A stretch of DNA of 64,000 nt from Monodelphis domestica (lineage: Eukaryota; Chordata; Mammalia; Didelphimorphia; Didelphidae): assembly GCF_027887165.1 (NCBI RefSeq), contig NC_077233.1:180195207-180259206 (forward strand), in the 5' to 3' direction. Position 1 is the first letter of the stretch. Every line of letters begins with the position of its first letter. Of this stretch, positions 3,493 to 40,110 are shown piece by piece. The translations under genes were made by a program, and so were the position numbers. A model generated the notes under the pieces. That model ran no database searches and was not told the origin of the DNA. It saw nothing but the letters and a program-made list of their open reading frames with translations.

Positions 3493-4451
3493 TGTTACAA
3501 GGGAATCACTTTAAAAGACTGATATATATATTAATTTAAGGTCGCCAAGGAATCAGCTATGTAATTCTTAAATGAAAACTTAAGTCAGCCGTCAATCTTT
3601 TATGGAGTTTAATTACAATAAGAGGAAGTAATTAGAGATAGAGAGAGAGAAAAAGGAGAGAAGGAAATAGGGCTTAAATACCCCTTCTGTTTAGGCTGGG
3701 CCAAAAGGCCCAAGCCCTTAGATAGCTGGGGCAAAGAAAAGAGATCAGTCCCTATTACTCACGTGACCAAAATGGAGAAACAGTCTCAGAGGCCCCCACC
3801 TTCAGCTTCCTTCAGAGCAAGCTTCTCAGAGCCCACACGACCACACCGACCAACTACTCAACCACCCCCTCGGAGTCTTCAGACCCCCTATCTTTAAGGA
3901 AACCATCCAAGTTCCTCCCCTCAGTTCTCCCATCTACCAATCACTCTTCATCAATTTCCCTGTGCCAATGGAGGCTCTAGCTTAACCCAGGACCGCCCAG
4001 AGGTTTCTGGCTTTTGCACATGTCTGTTGAAGGTCATATTTTCAAATGATTAAATCTTTGCTCCTTTGCTACAGCCCTTTCTAAATCCTGTTAACCTGAG
4101 TAGGGTAGAGATTGGAATAATTAAATTTTGATCTAGGCTGCAGCCCTTACTCAATCCTGTTAGGACTGAATAGGGTGGAGATTGATTCCAAGTATCTCCA
4201 TTGTATCAATTCTAAAATCAATCATGACTCAAAGAAATTCTGTTCTATGCTTAAGCATAGGTCAAAGTCCTTTCCATTGTTCAGCAAAAGGTTTCTGTCC
4301 TAAAGTAATCTTAAGAAGGGAAGAGAAGGAACCTCCCATGCCAATGGGGTTCCCATTCCAATAGACTATCAATAAGAAATTTTCCAAGTATGAAATATCC
4401 CAATGGTGAAATTTCCAACATTTATAAGTCTAAGGAAATTTGAGGTTTACA
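3493..4451 (-). mobile_element. Solo ERV LTR, family 1 copy 1 (959 bp)
   Basis: Bounded by TG...CA on the plus strand (starts TGTTACAAGG, ends GGTTTACA) and flanked by a perfect 4-bp target duplication CCAC (3,489-3,492 and 4,452-4,455), as for class I (ERV1-like) integrations. Minus orientation is inferred from a TATA-like TATTTAAGCCC on that strand (about 3,671-3,682). The near-identical copy at 13,893-14,865 confirms both ends. No internal viral genes, so it is a solo LTR. Confidence 0.88.
4048..4187. repeat. Tandem duplication inside LTR family 1
   Basis: Two diverged units of about 68-70 bp, 4,048-4,116 and 4,117-4,187, both built around CAGCCCTT...AATCCTGTTA...GAGTAGGGT or a close variant. 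The same pair is in copy 2 at roughly 14,450-14,595, so it predates both insertions. Confidence 0.7.
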
Positions 4452-13639: not shown

Positions 13640-13880
13640 TAAAGGTTCGACTGGATTATTCAAGAGTAGGGCTGCCAGTTGAGGAAAGACTCTGAATGAA
13701 CATCCTAAGGCAAAAGCCAATAACATGGAAATGAGTTCGGATCGAGGACATACGGGATACCCAGAGGAATCACGCATCACCAATGGGGGTGGGGGTGGGG
13801 GAAGGAAAAGAAAATGATCTTTGTTTCTAATGAATAATGTTTGAAAATAACCAAATAAAATAAGGTTTATGTAAAAAAAA
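13640..13880 (+). mobile_element. L1 3' UTR with poly(A) tail
   Basis: At first this looks like a processed pseudogene 3' end (AAATAAAATAAGG followed by A9). Its words align with the reverse complements of 25,485-25,640 and 22,121-22,383 (ATGAATAATGT.TGAAAAT.ACCAAATAAAATAA), which places it as the 3' UTR of an L1 family. Also contains a short GGGGGT repeat at about 13,785-13,800. Confidence 0.75.
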
Positions 13881-13892
13881 AGATTAGGGTTA

Positions 13893-14865
13893 TGTGACAA
13901 GGAAATCACTTTTAAAAGACTGATATATATTAATTTAAGGTCGCCAAGGAATTCAGCTATGTAATTCCTAAATGAAAACTCAAGTCAGCCGTCAACCTTT
14001 TATGGAGTTTTAATTACAAACAGGAGGAAGAAAGGAATTAGAGATAGAGAGATAGAGGTAGAGGGAAAGGGGAGAGAAGGGAATAGGGCTTAAATACCCC
14101 TTCTGTTTAGCCTGAGCCAAAAGGCCCAAGCCCTTAGATAGCTGGGGCAAAGAAAGGAGATCAGTCCCTATTACTCACGTGACCAAAATGGAGAAACAGT
14201 CTCAGAGCCCCCACCTTCAGCTTCCTTCAGAGCAAGCTTCTCTGAGCACACCGCAACCACTCTGACAAACTCCTAAAACCCCCCCCCTGAGTCTTCAGAC
14301 CCCTCTCATCCAAGTTGCCTCCCCTCAGTTCTCACATCTACCAATCACTGTCCATCAATTTCCCTGTGCCAATGGAGGCTCTAGCTTAACCCAGGACCGC
14401 CCAGAGGTCTTCTGGCTTTGCACATGTCTGTTGAAGGTCATATTTTCAAATAATTAAATCTTTGATCCTTTGCTACAGCCCTTCCTAAATCCTGTTAACC
14501 TGAGTAGGGTAGAGATTGGAATAATTAAATTTTGATCTATGCTGCAGCCCTTCCTCAATCCTGTTAGGACTGAGTAGGGTGGAGATTGATTCCAAGTATC
14601 TCCATTGTATCAATTCTAAAATCAATCATGACTCAAAGAAATTCCTGTTCTTTGCTTAAGAATAGGTCAAAGTTCTTTCCATTGTTCAGCAAAAAGTTTC
14701 TGTCCTAAAGTAATCTTAAGAAGGGAGGAGGGGGAAACTCTCATGCCAAAGGGGTTCACATTCCAATAGCCAAGACCCACTATCAATAGGGAATTTTTCA
14801 AGTATGAAATTTCCCAATGGTGAAATTTCCAACATTTATAAGTCTAAGAAATTTTGAGGTTTACA
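13893..14865 (-). mobile_element. Solo ERV LTR, family 1 copy 2 (973 bp)
   Basis: Starts TGTGACAAGG and ends GGTTTACA on the plus strand, with a perfect 4-bp duplication GTTA at 13,889-13,892 and 14,866-14,869. Very similar throughout to 3,493-4,451, including the internal tandem pair. The TATA-like motif (about 14,088-14,098) again points to the minus strand. It sits at the 3' edge of another LTR (14,866-15,533). Confidence 0.88.
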
Positions 14866-15907: not shown

Positions 15908-16770
15908 AAAACTTTTTTCCCCAAATTTATTTATTTTATTTTAATGACAAATTTCCACATAAATTTTCCAAAGTTATATGATTCATGTTGTCTCCTTCCT
16001 TTCCTCCTTCCCCCTACCTGGAGCTGACAAGAAATTCAATCTGGGTTGTAGATGTATGCATAAGTAGTTCCAGATTATTCATTTTTAAGTGAATAATCTT
16101 ATAAAACCAAAATCCTAAATCATATACCCATATAAACAAGTGATAAATCATATTTTTCATCTGCATTTCTCCTCCAACAGTTCTTTCTCTGGAGTTGGAC
16201 AGCATTTTTTCATAAGTCCCTTGGAATTGTCCTGGATCATTGTATTGCTGTTAGTAGCAAAGACCATGATATTTGATCTTTCCATAGTATTTTAGATACC
16301 GTGTATAATGTTCTCCTGATTCTGCTTATTTCACTCTCCATCAGTTCATGAAGGTTTTTCTAGTTCTTTCTGCAACCATCCTGTTCATCATTCCTTACAG
16401 CATAATAGTATTCCATCACCATCATATACCACAATTTGTTCAGTCATTATCCAATTGAGGGACAACCTTTTACTTTCTAATGCTTTGCCACCACAAAAAG
16501 TATAGCTATAAATATTCTGTACAAATTAGTCCTTTCTCATTATTTTATCTCTTTGGGATACAGACCTAGTAATGGTATTACTGGATCAAAAGGTAAGCAT
16601 TATTTTTTAGCCCTTTGGGCACATTTCCAAATTGTCCTACAGAATGGTTGGATCAATTCACAACTCGACCAGCAATGCATTAGTGTCCCAATTGTGCCAC
16701 ATCACCTCCAACATTTATTCTTTTCCTTTACTGTCTTATTAGCCACCTATTTAGCTTTGAATGTCACTGA
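15908..16770 (-). mobile_element. L1-type LINE 3' end (minus)
   Basis: From 3' UTR at about 15,908 to ORF2 C-terminal sequence near 16,770, antisense. Shares blocks with 43,785-44,495 and 1-560 (CAGCATAATAGTATTCCATCA, TACCACAATTTGTTCAG, TCTTTGGGATACAGACC). Confidence 0.8.
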
Positions 16771-19432: not shown

Positions 19433-19655
19433 TTTTTTTAAATTATTATTATTTTTAAAACCCTTACCTTCCATCTTGGAGTCAATACTGTACTCTGTAT
19501 TGGCTCCAAGGCAGAAGAATGGTAAGGGCTAGGCAATGAGGGTCATGTACTTGCCCAGAGTCACACAGCTGGGAAGTGTCTGAGGCCAGATTTGAACCGA
19601 GGACCTCCCATCTCTAGGTCTGGCTCTCAATCCACTGAGCTACCCAGCTGCCCCC
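19433..19655 (-). mobile_element. tRNA-type SINE family A, with perfect target duplication
   Basis: Antisense full-length copy: the low end carries CCCTTACCTTCCATCTTGGA, the high end the head (GAGCTACCCAGCTGCCCCC). Flanked by the 15-bp direct repeat AGTTATACCATTTTA at 19,418-19,432 and 19,656-19,670, the mark of LINE-driven retrotransposition. Confidence 0.9.
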
Positions 19656-19670
19656 AGTTATACCATTTTA

Positions 19671-19912: not shown

Positions 19913-20525
19913 TGAGCCATCTTGGAGGGCAATTTGCAACTATGCCTAAATGGCTTTAAAAGAATGCATGCCCTTCGATCCAGAAATACCATTGCTGAGT
20001 TTGTACCCCAAAGAGACAATAGGGGAAAATATATTTATAGCCACACTCTGTAGCAGCAAAAAATTTGGAAAATGAGGGGGTGTCCATCTATTGGGGAATG
20101 ACTAAACAAATTATGGTATCTATTGGTGATGGAATACTATTGTGCTGAAAGGAATGATGAACTGGAGGAATTCCATGTGAACTGGAAAGACCTCCAGGAA
20201 TTGATGCAGAGCAAAAGGAGCAGAACCAGGAGAACATTGTACACAGAAACTGATATACTGTGGTACAATCAAATGTAATGGACTTCTTTACTAGTAGCAA
20301 TGCAATGATCCAGGACAATCCTGAGGAATTTATGAGATAGAGAATGCTATCCACATCCAGAGAAAGAACTGTGAGAATAGAAGCGCAGAAGAAAAACATA
20401 TGGTTGATCAAATCGTCCAATGGGTTTATGATTGGAGAATTTTGACTTTAAATGATCACTCTATTGCAATATTAATAATTTGAAAATAGGTTTTGAACAA
20501 TGATATATGTATAACCCTGTAGGTA
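19913..20525 (+). mobile_element. L1-type LINE 3' end (plus), truncated at the virus junction
   Basis: GGAATACTATTGTGCTGAAAG, AGAACCAGGAGAACATTGTA and ATATGTATAACCC are the plus-strand versions of the ORF2 end and 3' UTR. Compared with 7,345-7,445, it loses its 3' tail right after GTATAACCC, where parvovirus-derived sequence begins. Confidence 0.75.
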
Positions 20526-20597
20526 TTAATCACTTGTATGTCTCCTCTCATTTCCATTGATCTGTCTGGATCTTCATCTTTGACACCAAGAGTTTTT

Positions 20598-21266
20598 AGT
20601 ATTTGAACACTGTCTTGTTTGTGTCTTCTGCAATTAGTATTGTTGCTGTTACTAATTTTAATATTGTGTTTGTGGTGGTACTATTGCTGTTTCTGTTACT
20701 GTTTTTATGCTTATGTTAAATATTTCTTGTTCTAGGTTTTGTAATCCTATGCATTTGCAAATTAGTGTCATGTGACTAAAGTCTGCTGGACTCATCCAGA
20801 CTCCTCAAGCATTGGCATCTAGTATAAACTATAATGTTAGTATTTGTGCATGTCCATTATCTCTCCATCCTGTGTATGGTGTTGCTCTTGCTGTTGATTT
20901 TGGTTTGGATACTTATAGAGAATATTCATCATATTCTGCTTCTTTTAGTATTATGTGTCTGTTTATATTACATGTTATCACCCATTCACCTTCAAATTTC
21001 TGTTCTGTTGTATTGTTAAAACTTCCTGTTGATTTTCCTATTCCTCCTCCTCCACCTGCTGTACCTGTTTTTTCCTCCTTCTGTGAATGTAGTTTGATTC
21101 ATGTCCATGTTTTCATCTATTTGATCAGTCATGTTTGTTTTAGCATTAGCTCCTAGTATCTTCCTTCCTTCCTTCCTTCCTTCCTTCCTTCCTTCCTTCC
21201 TTCCTTCCTTCCTTCCTTCCTTCCTTCCTTCCTTCCTTCCTTCCTTCCTTCCTCCCTCCCTCCCTC

Positions 21267-21326
<60 letters not shown>

Positions 21327-21365
21327 AGATTTATGAATGTGTGTCTAGGTGCAGGTCTTTTTTTA
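20598..21365 (-). pseudogene. Parvovirus VP1/VP2 capsid pseudogene, N-terminal part
   Basis: Continues from the PLA2 domain. First a basic KKRPAPRHTFIN stretch (21,329-21,365), then the microsatellite, then a possible VP2 start ATG at 21,132-21,130 (MTDQIDEN). After a frame change near 21,065-21,076 comes the glycine-rich GTAGGGGIGKSTGSFNN (about 21,010-21,060), typical of protoparvovirus VP2 N-termini, followed by EWVITCNINR. A further frame holds DANA, a TGA (20,805-20,807) where tryptophan is expected, then GVWMSPADFSHM, and finally TILIAEDTNKTVFKY near 20,598-20,645. The remaining capsid is not found. Confidence 0.9.
21159..21325. repeat. Compound microsatellite (CTTC)n-(CCCT)n-(CT)n-(CTTT)n inside VP
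   Basis: Starts at about 21,159 with near-perfect CTTC, passes through CCTC and a CT run, and ends with CTTT near 21,325. It interrupts the capsid frame between the basic VP1 stretch and the VP2 start. The AAGA-rich sense-strand codons there are a likely seed. Confidence 0.95.
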
Positions 21366-21419
21366 CTTACAGTTTGCTGGCTGGTTTTTGTTTTTGTTGT
21401 TGTTTGAAGGTTGAAATTA

Positions 21420-21654
21420 TGGTGCTATTAGTCTCTTTATTTTGAAAGCTTTGTTTCTGATCCAACCACCCCAGTCTCTGGCATTGTTGGTTTCTTGTAC
21501 AGATTTAGCATCAGTTTCATTGAAGTACCAGTAAGGGTTCTGTCTCGATTGTATAAAATGATAGTGCTCATCGTGTTTTTTGGCAGCTTTATCACTTGGA
21601 TTGGTTAGTTCTCCCTGATCAAGAGTATTGCCCAGCCCAAGGTATTTGTATATC
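21420..21654 (-). pseudogene. Parvovirus VP1-unique region: phospholipase A2 domain
   Basis: VP1u PLA2 is the capsid lipase parvoviruses use to leave endosomes. About 78 codons are open with no stop. Visible in order: calcium loop YLGLGN (about 21,627-21,648), LDQGELTNPSDKAAKKHDE with the catalytic His-Asp pair (HD codons at 21,570-21,575), NPYWYF (21,523-21,543), WGGWI (about 21,459-21,475) and a basic KIKR. The loop has leucine where proline is usual in PLA2 loops (YLGPGN type). There is no ATG in this frame; the leader would come from the exon before the candidate intron. The frame ends at TAA 21,417-21,419. Confidence 0.93.
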
Positions 21655-21731
21655 CTACAAAATATGGTTGGGTTAGTTAAATTGTTAGTAGTATGTTATT
21701 TGTCAGTTAATTAAAATTTTTTTTGCCTTAC
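21655..21731 (-). other. Candidate VP1 intron with splice sites preserved
   Basis: On the minus strand, AAAAG/GTAAGG (donor GT at 21,731-21,730) and a T-rich ATTTTGTAG/G acceptor (AG at 21,656-21,655) bound a 77-nt segment. It lies just where protoparvoviruses splice between the NS1 tail / VP1 leader and the VP1 body. Both sites fit consensus, but the element is dead and use is unproven. Confidence 0.5.
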
Positions 21732-22990
21732 CTTTTCTTGGCCAGTTTTAGGACATGTTTTCTTCTAGCCACCAGTTGTTGAACTCCCAAATGAATGGTT
21801 GAGTTTGTTGTGAGGAACAGGCTCCCACATCTTTGGGTTGTTCTGCAGGTATTGGAATATCCTCTTGTGAGTTGGTAATTGATGTAGAGGCAATCAGTTC
21901 TGGTATTAATACTTTCTGATCTTCTTTTCCATATATTCAGTTCATTAGCTTCTGTGATGAAGTCCCAGTCTTTTAGACTGATTTTGTTCATCAGTTCACT
22001 TGGGTTAGTTTTATTTATATTTGGTTTTGGCTCTGTCCAATTTTCTTCCCATACTGGTACATCAGTCCAAAGTTCAACATAACTGCTCATTGTTAGATAG
22101 TATCCAAGTTCTTCTAATATGTTTTTCCATTTGAATTAGTTTATTTAGTCAAATTAGAACATTATTCCTTGGGTACAATAATCACATTATTTCCCTCTTT
22201 CCCCTCCACCCACTCTTCCCGCAGCCAACGCACAATTTCATTGGGTATTACATGTGCCTTTGGTCAGAACTTATTTCCATGTTGTTGTTTGCACTAGGAT
22301 GTTCATTTAGAGTCTACATCCTCAACAATATGCCTTCAACCCATGTATTCAAGCAGTTGTTTTTCTTTGGTGTTTTTACTCACGCTCTTCTAATATTTTA
22401 AATAGATTTGGTATTTCTTTATTATCTTTGATTCCAAACCTAGCATCCAGTGTGGTGTGAAGTCTTATATTAACACATCTGTGTTTAATAGACTCAGAGT
22501 GTTCTGGTCTGAGTTCACAGCCAATTCTTACATTTGTTATGCCCTCATTTGAGGTCATAATTACTGGAGTAGGTTCTATTGCTTTGCTTCCTTTTCCTTT
22601 TTTGATCTAATCTGATACTTTGTCCTGACATAATTGCCTTAAATTGGTTTACTTGCTGACCCAAGTTACAAGCTTCTTCTATCTATATAATATTTTTGTT
22701 GCAACAATCATTAAATGGAAAGTTTACATTTGCTGGGTTGTAGCAACTAACATTACCAACAAATTCACATTTTTTTGTGTGTTATTAGAATTTTTCCTGT
22801 GCTTACTGGTCCTTGTAGAAGGATTGCGTTTCTTTTTCCTAGTTGTTTATTTAGTGTACACATCATTCCATGTTCTACTTTGATTGGGTTGTAATTATTT
22901 AATTTTAGTATTTTTAAACGTTTTGTGTTGTTGGAGAGCAGTTGAAGTGTTATCTATTTGTTTTTTGTTCTCTTGCACTGGTTTGTTCCA
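21728..22990 (-). pseudogene. Parvovirus NS1-like pseudogene, helicase domain to C-terminus
   Basis: NS1 is the viral replication protein (nickase plus SF3 helicase). Visible here, in order: a frame ending in NPIKVEHGMM just upstream; Walker A GPVSTGK at 22,792-22,812; a Walker B region with NVNFPFNDC (about 22,701-22,740); QVNQFKAI and SGQSIRLDQK (22,608-22,662); EPTPVIMTSNEG (about 22,541-22,585). A conserved tryptophan position before IEE reads as TAG (22,683-22,685). Frame changes lie near an A/T run at 22,769-22,776 and at 22,597-22,606. The frame is then open from 22,599 to 22,376, split by an L1 fragment, and resumes through 21,728-22,120 with VPVWEENW. No start or N-terminal domain. 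Cannot encode a working protein. Confidence 0.9.
22121..22383 (-). mobile_element. L1 3' UTR fragment inserted in the NS1 pseudogene
   Basis: Flanked by a 13-bp direct repeat with one mismatch, GTTCTTCTAATAT (22,108-22,120) and GCTCTTCTAATAT (22,384-22,396). The body matches the L1 3' UTR family at 13,640-13,880 and 25,485-25,750, antisense to it. Removing one repeat copy would bring the two NS1 frames together, so it entered after the virus was in the genome. Confidence 0.82.
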
Positions 22991-23014
22991 CTGAAAACTT
23001 ACGTTCAGGGCTAA

Positions 23015-23560
23015 AGGTTAGCCCTGGGTCCCTAACACTGCTCTTGGGCTAGAATTCACACAGCTACTTTTTTGAAACTTATTTTTTGTTCCACAGATAG
23101 GGTCCTTGTTCCCATGAAACCACTCCTGTCTGCCCTCGACTTGTGACTCGGGATTAGGAAATGAGCGAAAGAGCTGCCAGATGGCATCTATTCTTGCTCT
23201 CAGGACTAGCACAGGGGTTCACTGGGATCTTTTTCTGCCAAAGTGTTTCCTGCCCTGGTATTCAGTCCCCTTATCATCCCTGGGCACTGGAATGGTCCCT
23301 GCTCCCTATCACTGCTGCTGCTATACTGTGTTCGGTCAGCCCACAGAACAGTAAGTTGAGGCAGATAACAGTTAAGTTATTTTCCCAGAGTCAAACAGCT
23401 AGTAAGCATCAGAGGCTGGATTCAAACTCAAGTCTTTCTGTTTTCAGACCCAGTGCAGCTGGTTGCCTAAAGTTTAGAGGGAGTTTGATGGGATCCCTTC
23501 TCTATGTCTTTGGTAGAGCACTCTGGTCACTTCCTAAAGGTTGTATGTAACTGCATTTCA
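23015..23560. other. Unassigned flank of the parvovirus element
   Basis: G+C-richer than the surroundings. Open frames on both strands (23,018-23,212 minus, 23,161-23,550 plus) resemble nothing I recognise. 23,345-23,470 has MIR-like antisense words (GCTAGTAAGCATCAGAGGCTG). It may be the internal part of an unknown retroelement. Confidence 0.4.
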
Positions 23561-25474: not shown

Positions 25475-26400
25475 CTTTTTTTAAAACATTATTTTATTTG
25501 GTCATTTTCATACATTATTCATTGGAAAGAGAGATCATTTTCTTTTCCTCCCACCCCCCCAACCATCCCTTCCCTAGCCAATGCTCGATTCCACTGGGTA
25601 TCACATGTGTCCTTGCTCCAAACCCATTTCCTTGTTGTTACTATTTGTTCACCTAATTGGTCATTCATCCATTCTGAGTTTATCTTGGTGTAGGGTGTGA
25701 GATGTTGATCCAAACCTAATCTCTCCCACACTTTCAATTTTACCAGTAATTTTTATCAAATAGAGGATTTTTGTCCAAAAAGCTGGGGTCTTTGGTTTGT
25801 CATAGACTGTCTTGCTGAGGTAATTTACCCCAAGTCTATTCCACTGATCCTCCTTTCTGTCTCTTAGCCAGTACCAAATTGTTTTGATGACTGCTGCTTG
25901 GTAATATAGTTTGAGATCTGGGACTGCAAGGCCACCTTCCTTTGTATTTTTTTCATCATTTCCCTGGATATCCTTGATGTTTTGTTCTTCCAAATGAACT
26001 TTATTATGGTTTTCTCTAATTCAGTAAAAAAGTTTTTTGGAAGTTCAATGGGTATGGCACTAAATAGATAGATAAGTTTGGGTAGGATGGTCATTTTTAT
26101 TAAGCTAGCTTGTCCCACCCATGAGCAATCAATGTTTTTCCAATTGTTTAGATCTAGTTTTAATTGTGTGGAGAGTGTTTTATAATTGTGTTCATATAGT
26201 TCCTGTGTTTGTCTCAGCAGATAGATTACTAAGTATTTTATATTGTCTTTGGTGACTTTAAATGGAATTTCTCTTTTTAATTCTTGCTGCTGAACTGGGT
26301 TGGAGATATATAGAAATGCTGATGACTTATGCGGGTTTATTTTGTATCCTGCAACTTTGCTAAAATTGTTGATTATTTCTACTAGCTTTTTGGTTGATTC
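25475..26400 (-). mobile_element. L1 LINE: ORF2 C-terminal coding plus 3' UTR
   Basis: The best-preserved LINE-1 coding relic here. Minus frames include ILPKLIYLFSAIPIELP and KTIIKFIWKNKTSRIS (25,864-26,118) and GGLAVPDLKLYYQAAVIKT (25,661-25,993), all standard L1 ORF2 blocks downstream of the reverse transcriptase. The two frames overlap in different phases, so at least one frameshift is present. 3' UTR at 25,475-25,660; the LTR at 26,489 lies just upstream in L1 terms. Confidence 0.9.
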
Positions 26401-26488
26401 TCTAGGATTCTTTATGGTTTTGCTCTCTCTCTCTTTTATTTCCCTTTTCTCTCCAACTATTGTAGTTTCCTCTTAGAAAGTGCAATAT

Positions 26489-39178: not shown

Positions 39179-39617
39179 AAAAAAATTGAGACCTGGTATT
39201 ACCAGGCCTTCTTCCTTCACTTTTTTTTTCATTAGTTCCCTTGAAATTCTTGAACATTTGTTCTTCCAGATGAAATCTGTTAATTATTTTTCTGGTTCTA
39301 TAAAATAATTATTTGGTGGTTTGATTGGTATGGCACTGAATAAATACACTAATTTAGATAATATTGTCATTTTATTATATTAGCTCAGCCTATCCACAAG
39401 CAATTAATATTTTTCCAATTGTTTAGATCTGACTTTATTTGTCTGAAAAGTGTTTTGTGATTGTGTTCATATAATTTCTGTGTTTGCCTTGGCAAGTAAA
39501 TTCATGTGTATTTCATATTGTTTAGAGTGATTTTAAATGGAATTTCTCTTTCTGACTCTTGCTATTAGACTTTGTTGGTAATATACAGAAATGCTGAAGA
39601 TTTATGTGGATTTATTT

Positions 39618-40110
39618 TGTATCTTAGCAGTTCTTTTTGTGGTGTCAAAGAACCAGGTACTAAAGGGGTGCCCATCATTTGAGGAATGGCTTAACAAATT
39701 ATGATATGTAAATATACCATAACACATGACATAAAATTGTGTCAAACGAAGTGACAAATGGGATGGTTTCAGAGAAACCTGGGAAAACTTGAGTGAATTG
39801 ATGCAGAGTGAAGTGAGGAGAATTGAGAAAATAATTTATTCAATAACTCCAGCATAAGAAAGCCAAATATCTTTGGAAGACTTAAGAACTCTGATGAATA
39901 CAATGACCAACTATGATTCCAGAGGTCTGAAAACAACTCATGTTACTCACTTCCATGTTGAATGAGACATACGTTTTTTACATAGCCAGTATGAAAATTT
40001 GTTTGCCTGACTATGCATATATGTTACAAGGACTTTGTTTTCCTCTTTGGTGGTATGGTGAGGAGAGAAGAAAAATGTTTGTTAGTTAAAAAATGAAATT
40101 ATACATTGAG
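39618..40110 (+). mobile_element. L1-type LINE 3' end (plus), part 2
   Basis: GGGGTGCCCATCATTTGAGG, GAATTGATGCAGAGTGAAGT and a closing TTAAAAAATGAAATTATA tail. Junction words TAGCAATTCTTT (about 38,582) and TAGCAGTTCTTT (about 39,625) look like the duplicated target of the inserted block. Confidence 0.7.

What the first reader, a model, noticed from the sequence alone, without database searches (positions are those of the whole stretch)
20530..22990. Endogenous parvovirus fossil with NS1, VP1 and VP2 parts in viral order
Seen: helicase motifs (GPVSTGK, NVNFPFNDC, QVNQFKAI, EPTPVIMTSNE), then the PLA2 motifs (YLGLGN, HDEHY, NPYWYF, WGGW), then a glycine-rich VP2 start and further capsid words, all on one strand within 2.5 kb. 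Known: this combination and order is specific to Parvoviridae. Inferred: Protoparvovirus-like, integrated in a mammalian (probably marsupial) germ line. It is easily missed because no viral frame over 125 codons survives and the PLA2 frame has no ATG.
Basis: partly seen in the sequence, partly recalled or inferred. Interest (0 to 1): 0.93.

Follow-up and report, generated by a model that had tools for sequence, protein, structure and literature searches.

The report
Broken ancient parvovirus in mammal DNA
A decayed, partial copy of an ancient parvovirus sits in this mammalian (probably marsupial) genome, a well-known kind of viral fossil that here shows both virus genes in order but has no sign of still working.

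Summary
On the minus strand, about 22,960 down to 20,520, stop-free pieces match, in viral order, parvovirus NS1 helicase (best E 3.3e-14), the VP1-type phospholipase A2 (3.3e-17) and VP2 coat (8.3e-7, 4.3e-10). None of 91 flanking minus-strand pieces matches a parvovirus family. It is an endogenous parvoviral element: a partial genome without the NS1 start and about three quarters of VP2, broken by stops and frame changes, a nested L1-tail-like insertion with a 16/19 target-site duplication and a microsatellite. The phospholipase is closest to H-1 parvovirus (82 bits; AAV-DJ 37.6), so it is protoparvovirus-like, although one VP2 piece scores best with an amdoparvovirus. No full-length viral protein can be made; neutral decay after a germ-line integration explains it best. 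Such elements are known: Campbell 2022 counts at least 105 protoparvovirus-related integrations in mammals, with an EPV-only 'Archaeoproto' clade common in marsupials (PMC9707805, passages). Marsupial host, clade, and whether this locus is already catalogued could not be tested. New member of a known kind; low interest.

The parts
22765..22953 (-). NS1 helicase piece with Walker A motif (profile positions 81-130 of 271)
   Evidence: Parvo_NS1 E 3.9e-12; Rep40/Rep68 and two NS1 sequences in the PDB, E 1.2e-4 to 3.7e-4
22686..22781 (-). NS1 helicase piece (profile positions 134-161)
   Evidence: Parvo_NS1 E 0.00059, 19.3 bits, just under the cut-off of 20
22545..22682 (-). NS1 helicase piece (profile positions 164-196)
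   Evidence: Parvo_NS1 E 3.8e-5
22376..22606 (-). NS1 helicase piece (profile positions 190-260)
   Evidence: Parvo_NS1 E 3.3e-14; Rep chains from E 4e-5
22124..22380 (-). nested retrocopy resembling an L1 3' tail, inserted in the NS1 region
   Evidence: 22,135-22,326 has 69-73% identity to other stretches of the window (alignment A1); outer limits are taken from the duplication, so the end near 22,327-22,380 is inference
22105..22123 (-). target-site duplication, one copy
   Evidence: 16 of 19 identical to 22,381-22,399; so good a match in 1 of 1992 random window pairs and 3 of 2000 shuffles (zones chosen after the repeat had been seen)
22381..22399 (-). target-site duplication, other copy
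21731..22135 (-). 135-codon stop-free frame, probably NS1 C-terminal region by position; no family match
   Evidence: assignment is inference
21655..21731 (-). possible VP1 intron of 77 bases: GTAAG donor, TACTAAC branch-like site, TTTTGTAG acceptor
   Evidence: inference from motifs and position, no RNA data
21420..21695 (-). VP1 unique region with phospholipase A2 domain
   Evidence: Phospholip_A2_4 E 3.3e-17; H-1 parvovirus chain 4g0r E 2.5e-22
21160..21325 (-). microsatellite between VP1u and VP2 start (GGAA and GA runs on the minus strand)
20916..21098 (-). VP2 N-terminal piece with glycine-rich stretch (profile positions 1-46 of 525)
   Evidence: Parvo_coat E 8.3e-7; human bufavirus 1 chain 9cuz E 8e-8
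20661..20804 (-). VP2 piece (profile positions 87-126 of 525)
   Evidence: Parvo_coat E 4.3e-10; the 29 PDB sequences found at E up to 1 bear capsid, coat, VP or endogenous-viral-element names
20520..20660 (-). end zone, possibly more VP2; no family match
   Evidence: none matched a parvovirus; inference
19917..20517 (+). L1 3' part abutting the element; lacks the L1 3' end that the copy near 16 kb has
   Evidence: 72% identity to 16,065-16,647 up to 20,488; alignment A1

Best explanation
A germ-line fossil of one partial protoparvovirus-like genome. Shown: NS1 helicase, VP1-type phospholipase A2 and VP2 pieces lie in viral order on one strand within about 2.4 kb, broken by stops and frame changes and by a later L1-tail-like insertion with its own target-site duplication, amid host repeats. 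Inferred: viral DNA entered the germ line by non-homologous joining at a break, was fixed by drift, lost both ends at or after integration, and has decayed without a protein function. If it does anything now, it would be only as transcribed RNA, for which there is no evidence here.
For: Pfam and PDB matches of separate pieces; no parvovirus match in 91 flanking pieces; three frames used in NS1 and three stops in the 146-codon VP2 frame; target-site duplication around the insert; A-rich sense strand, 0.44 in NS1 and 0.46 in VP2, values reached by 1.5% and 0.3% of 2540 overlapping 500-base windows of both strands, the element's own included; L1 and SINE copies around it. Similar elements are reported in marsupials (PMC9707805 passages; PMC8449507 passages).
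Against: No target-site duplication or terminal repeat of the element itself was seen, so the integration route is not shown. Stretches inside it match nothing: 22,135-21,731 and 20,680-20,459, 20,912-20,832 and 20,715-20,599. Three scans of viral contigs and one protein search found no relative, which I take as a limit of those collections.
Confidence: 0.95

Rival explanations
1. The element derives from another parvovirus group, an amdoparvovirus-like 'AP' virus or a dependoparvovirus, rather than a protoparvovirus-like one.
For: One VP2 piece scores best with Aleutian mink disease virus (8ep2, 39.5 bits) ahead of tusavirus (6x2k, 34.5); NS1 pieces find mostly Rep40/Rep68 chains, from recall those of AAV, but only two NS1 sequences are in those lists.
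Against: The PLA2 domain is well kept and amdoparvoviruses lack it (PMC9612331 passages); a glycine-rich stretch is present, absent in the three AP elements of Penzes 2018 (PMC6232428 passages); the best chains for the VP2 pieces are bufavirus 1 and Aleutian mink disease virus, not AAV (many lower rows have generic names); for PLA2, H-1 parvovirus gives 82 bits, bufavirus 1 57, the next chain 42.3 and AAV-DJ 37.6.
Confidence: 0.12
2. The locus has been co-opted: its transcripts serve as antiviral small RNA or regulatory RNA although no full protein is made.
For: Parvovirus-like transcripts were found in five of 13 Australian marsupial species (PMC8449507 passages), and a degu Rep EPV inhibits a parvovirus (as told in PMC11521997 passages).
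Against: No expression data here; in the koala few small RNAs mapped to the parvovirus capsid EVE (PMC8449507 passages); the frames are broken.
Confidence: 0.04
3. A host helicase and a host phospholipase lie near each other by chance.
For: None found.
Against: The families above Pfam's cut-offs are Parvo_NS1, Parvo_coat and Phospholip_A2_4, the best solved chains are parvovirus capsid and Rep/NS1 proteins, and the order is viral.
Confidence: 0.005

Closest known systems
'Archaeoproto' clade of protoparvovirus-like EPVs (Campbell et al. 2022, PMC9707805; passages read)
   Same: Protoparvovirus-like, fossil only, highly represented in Australian and American marsupials
   Different: Clade placement of this element not tested; no published EPV sequence was available to compare
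Marsupial parvovirus EVE transcripts (Harding et al. 2021, PMC8449507; passages read)
   Same: VP1/VP2 and NS pieces in marsupial genomes
   Different: Those are transcribed loci; transcription of this one is unknown
[quoted passage not shown] 2018, PMC6232428; passages read)
   Same: Broken NS-VP fossil, one of them in a marsupial
   Different: This one has a glycine-rich VP2 start and a PLA2 piece matching its profile to the end; SarHar.1 has only a trace of NS and a disintegrated PLA2 catalytic part, but a near complete VP, which this one lacks
Mus spretus endogenous parvovirus capsid (6nf9)
   Same: Both VP2 pieces match it
   Different: Its capsid was assembled and solved by cryo-EM (listed in PMC6521121, passage); here VP2 is about a quarter present and broken

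Membership tests
Endogenous parvoviral element (Parvoviridae) | NS1/Rep helicase of parvovirus type | tested here: met
   Parvo_NS1 in three pieces above the cut-off and one just below
Endogenous parvoviral element (Parvoviridae) | Parvovirus coat protein downstream on the same strand | tested here: met
   Parvo_coat in two pieces
Endogenous parvoviral element (Parvoviridae) | Lies in host DNA and is degraded | tested here: met
   L1/SINE flanks; stops and frame changes; nested insertion
Endogenous parvoviral element (Parvoviridae) | Viral terminal repeats | tested here: inconclusive
   Two inverted pairs found in 20,400-23,100, neither pairs the two ends; both genome ends are missing
Protoparvovirus-like lineage | PLA2 domain in VP1u, absent in amdoparvoviruses (but shared with most other Parvovirinae) | tested here: met
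   Phospholip_A2_4 E 3.3e-17; best match H-1 parvovirus (name from PMC6521121)
Protoparvovirus-like lineage | VP2 closest to protoparvoviruses | tested here: inconclusive
   First piece best with human bufavirus 1, second piece best with Aleutian mink disease virus
Protoparvovirus-like lineage | Splicing inside the VP1 frame | tested here: inconclusive
   Donor, branch-like and acceptor motifs at 21,731-21,655; no RNA data
'Archaeoproto' EPV clade | Groups with marsupial and New World rodent EPVs in an NS tree | not testable with these tools
   No published EPV sequence in the collections reached; supplements not available
AP elements (Penzes 2018) | No poly-glycine stretch in VP | tested here: not met
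   Glycine-rich stretch present and inside the Parvo_coat match
Dependoparvovirus EPV | VP closest to AAV | tested here: not met
   Best chains are bufavirus 1, Aleutian mink disease virus and H-1 parvovirus; AAV-DJ is 44 bits below H-1 parvovirus for PLA2

The most novel reading that the evidence does not exclude
An uncatalogued germ-line integration of an extinct marsupial protoparvovirus that preserves, beside the PLA2 domain, the splice signals of the VP1 intron, so that it documents that this extinct lineage already made VP1 by splicing of the protoparvovirus type.
Probability: 0.3. Interest if true: 0.35.

Novelty: new member of a known kind. Interest (0 to 1): 0.2.

Why it matters
Each dated EPV adds a calibration point for how old parvovirus lineages are and which hosts they had. 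This one keeps parts of both genes on one strand, with PLA2 and a VP2 glycine-rich start, so it could be placed on both an NS and a VP tree. Its value is incremental: over a hundred protoparvovirus-related integrations in mammals are already described (PMC9707805 passages).

Tried and rejected
Searched for the missing NS1 start and the missing VP2 rest beyond the ends: 91 minus-strand pieces of at least 32 codons between 15,810 and 29,000, outside the element's body, gave no parvovirus family at E up to 0.1. One search listed 94 such pieces after a filter against low complexity; I left out three simple-repeat ones. So the missing parts are not merely pushed aside by an insertion within those bounds, as far as pieces of that length can show.

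Relatives: three scans of viral contigs (PLA2, NS1 and VP2 pieces) and one protein search found none; these collections may hold few animal viruses, so nothing follows. Rfam found nothing in the window. The bacterial promoter scan does not apply to a mammal and was set aside. PDB searches with two stretches of unclear nature gave no parvovirus match, and two short VP2-side pieces none in Pfam or the PDB. With the first VP2 piece, 6 of 35 PDB rows are receptor constructs at E 0.32 or worse, which I count as chance. The idea of an intact or co-opted protein gene was rejected because the frames are broken; selection was not tested. Paper searches: and 35 for the SINE; I make no claim that the locus is absent from print.

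Full report
Observation. I tested the stop-to-stop pieces apart. In one search, 6 of 10 pieces match above Pfam's own cut-offs: three Parvo_NS1 (E 3.9e-12, 3.8e-5, 3.3e-14), one Phospholip_A2_4 (3.3e-17; from recall the domain of parvovirus VP1) and two Parvo_coat (8.3e-7, 4.3e-10); 4 of 10 match no parvovirus family. In one search, 1 of 10 further pieces (22,781-22,686) matches Parvo_NS1 just under the cut-off; two VP2-side pieces there match nothing. As a control, 0 of 91 minus-strand pieces around the element match a parvovirus family at E up to 0.1.

Anatomy. Read from the viral 5' side, the element starts inside NS1: stretches between profile positions 81 and 260 of 271 of Parvo_NS1 are represented, positions 1 to 80 are not found. 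The helicase pieces use three frames. Then follows a stretch of about 257 bases of which 22,135-22,326 resembles the 3' tail of L1-like copies elsewhere in the window (69-73% identity; alignment A1). It is bounded by a direct repeat of 19 bases, 16 identical; so good a match was reached by 1 of 1992 random pairs of window stretches and by 3 of 2000 shuffles, with zones chosen after the repeat had been seen. I read it as a retroposon with its target-site duplication that landed in the viral sequence after integration. Next comes a 135-codon open frame without a match, by position probably the NS1 C-terminal region.

The PLA2 domain lies at 21,695-21,420. That its frame has no ATG need not be an anomaly: a GTAAG donor at 21,731, a TACTAAC at 21,690 and a TTTTGTAG acceptor ending at 21,655 outline a 77-base intron just before it, with ATGs upstream at 21,756 and 21,830 (three other acceptor-like words were found in 21,400-22,140, but no other GTAAG or GTGAG). 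Penzes 2018 states that splicing of protoparvovirus VP mRNA occurs within the VP frame (PMC6232428, passages). The match of motifs is suggestive, not proof. A GGAA/GA microsatellite (21,160-21,325) separates VP1u from the VP2 start, which carries the glycine-rich stretch. The VP2 frame from 21,098 to 20,661 holds three stops. Coat profile positions beyond 126 of 525 are not found. Up to about 20,517 the neighbour is the 3' part of an L1 on the opposite strand that lacks its own 3' end; whether the virus integrated in that L1 or a later deletion joined them is open.

Affinity. With the PLA2 piece the best solved chain is H-1 parvovirus VP1 (4g0r, 82 bits), then human bufavirus 1 (9cuz, 57), then other capsid chains at 42.3 bits and less, among them AAV-DJ (37.6) (names from PMC6521121, and PMC11360561, passages). 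The first VP2 piece is best with human bufavirus 1 (35.8 bits), then Aleutian mink disease virus (30.1). The second is best with Aleutian mink disease virus (8ep2, 39.5), then tusavirus (6x2k, 34.5) (names from PMC9612331, and PMC7354515, passages). NS1 pieces find Rep40/Rep68 chains (AAV from recall) and two NS1 sequences, which does not place them. Since amdoparvoviruses lack PLA2, a protoparvovirus-like origin is the best reading, but a basal position in the Amdo-Proto lineage is not excluded.

Age. If the duplication was perfect when made, 3 of 19 differences give about 20 million years for the nested insertion, with a range of 3.8 to 62.5 from the small number alone (Jukes-Cantor, two copies, the rate 0.0045 per million years that a Tasmanian devil study derived for WSINE1; PMC3403934, passages). 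That is a minimum for the element and holds only if the host is an Australian marsupial with that rate. It rests on one short repeat and is an order of magnitude at best.

Host. L1 sequence and 19 hits (the query itself included) of a SINE in 64 kb fit a mammal. The SINE looks to me, from recall, like the marsupial WSINE1; that was not tested, nor was the window's own genome reachable.

Compared with what is known. Campbell 2022 reports 121 protoparvovirus-related EPV sequences in mammals, at least 105 integrations, most spanning at least about half of the genome, with an EPV-only 'Archaeoproto' clade highly represented in Australian and American marsupials (PMC9707805, passages). Harding 2021 found parvovirus-like transcripts in five of 13 Australian marsupial species (PMC8449507, passages). 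A 2024 survey reports purifying selection on some marsupial parvovirus orthogroups (PMC11521997, passages); selection was not tested here, and the broken frames make it unlikely. So this is an ordinary member of a known kind. It may or may not be among the published loci; I could not check.

Noticed in passing
3493-4451 and 13893-14865: Two copies, 89.7% identical, 959 and 973 bases, begin TG and end CA; each is flanked by its own 4-base duplication (CCAC and GTTA), so they look like two solo LTRs of one endogenous retrovirus family. Of 44 pieces of at least 55 codons between them, 34 were scanned; none matched a retroviral family at E up to 0.01.
   Followed up: partly
25867-26472, minus strand; similar DNA at 39186-39623 and 1080-1603: L1 ORF2-like remnants; the first gives a weak reverse-transcriptase match under the cut-off (E 0.0058; copies).
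   Followed up: partly
19460-19660 and 18 further hits across the window: A SINE with copies up to 91% identical, from recall like the marsupial CORE-SINE WSINE1.
   Followed up: partly
13678-13863: An L1-tail-like copy ends about 30 bases before one of the two LTR-like copies (13893), perhaps a nested insertion.
   Followed up: no
23000-23340: Sequence next to the element on the NS1 side that matches no other part of the window and whose minus-strand pieces match no parvovirus family.
   Followed up: no
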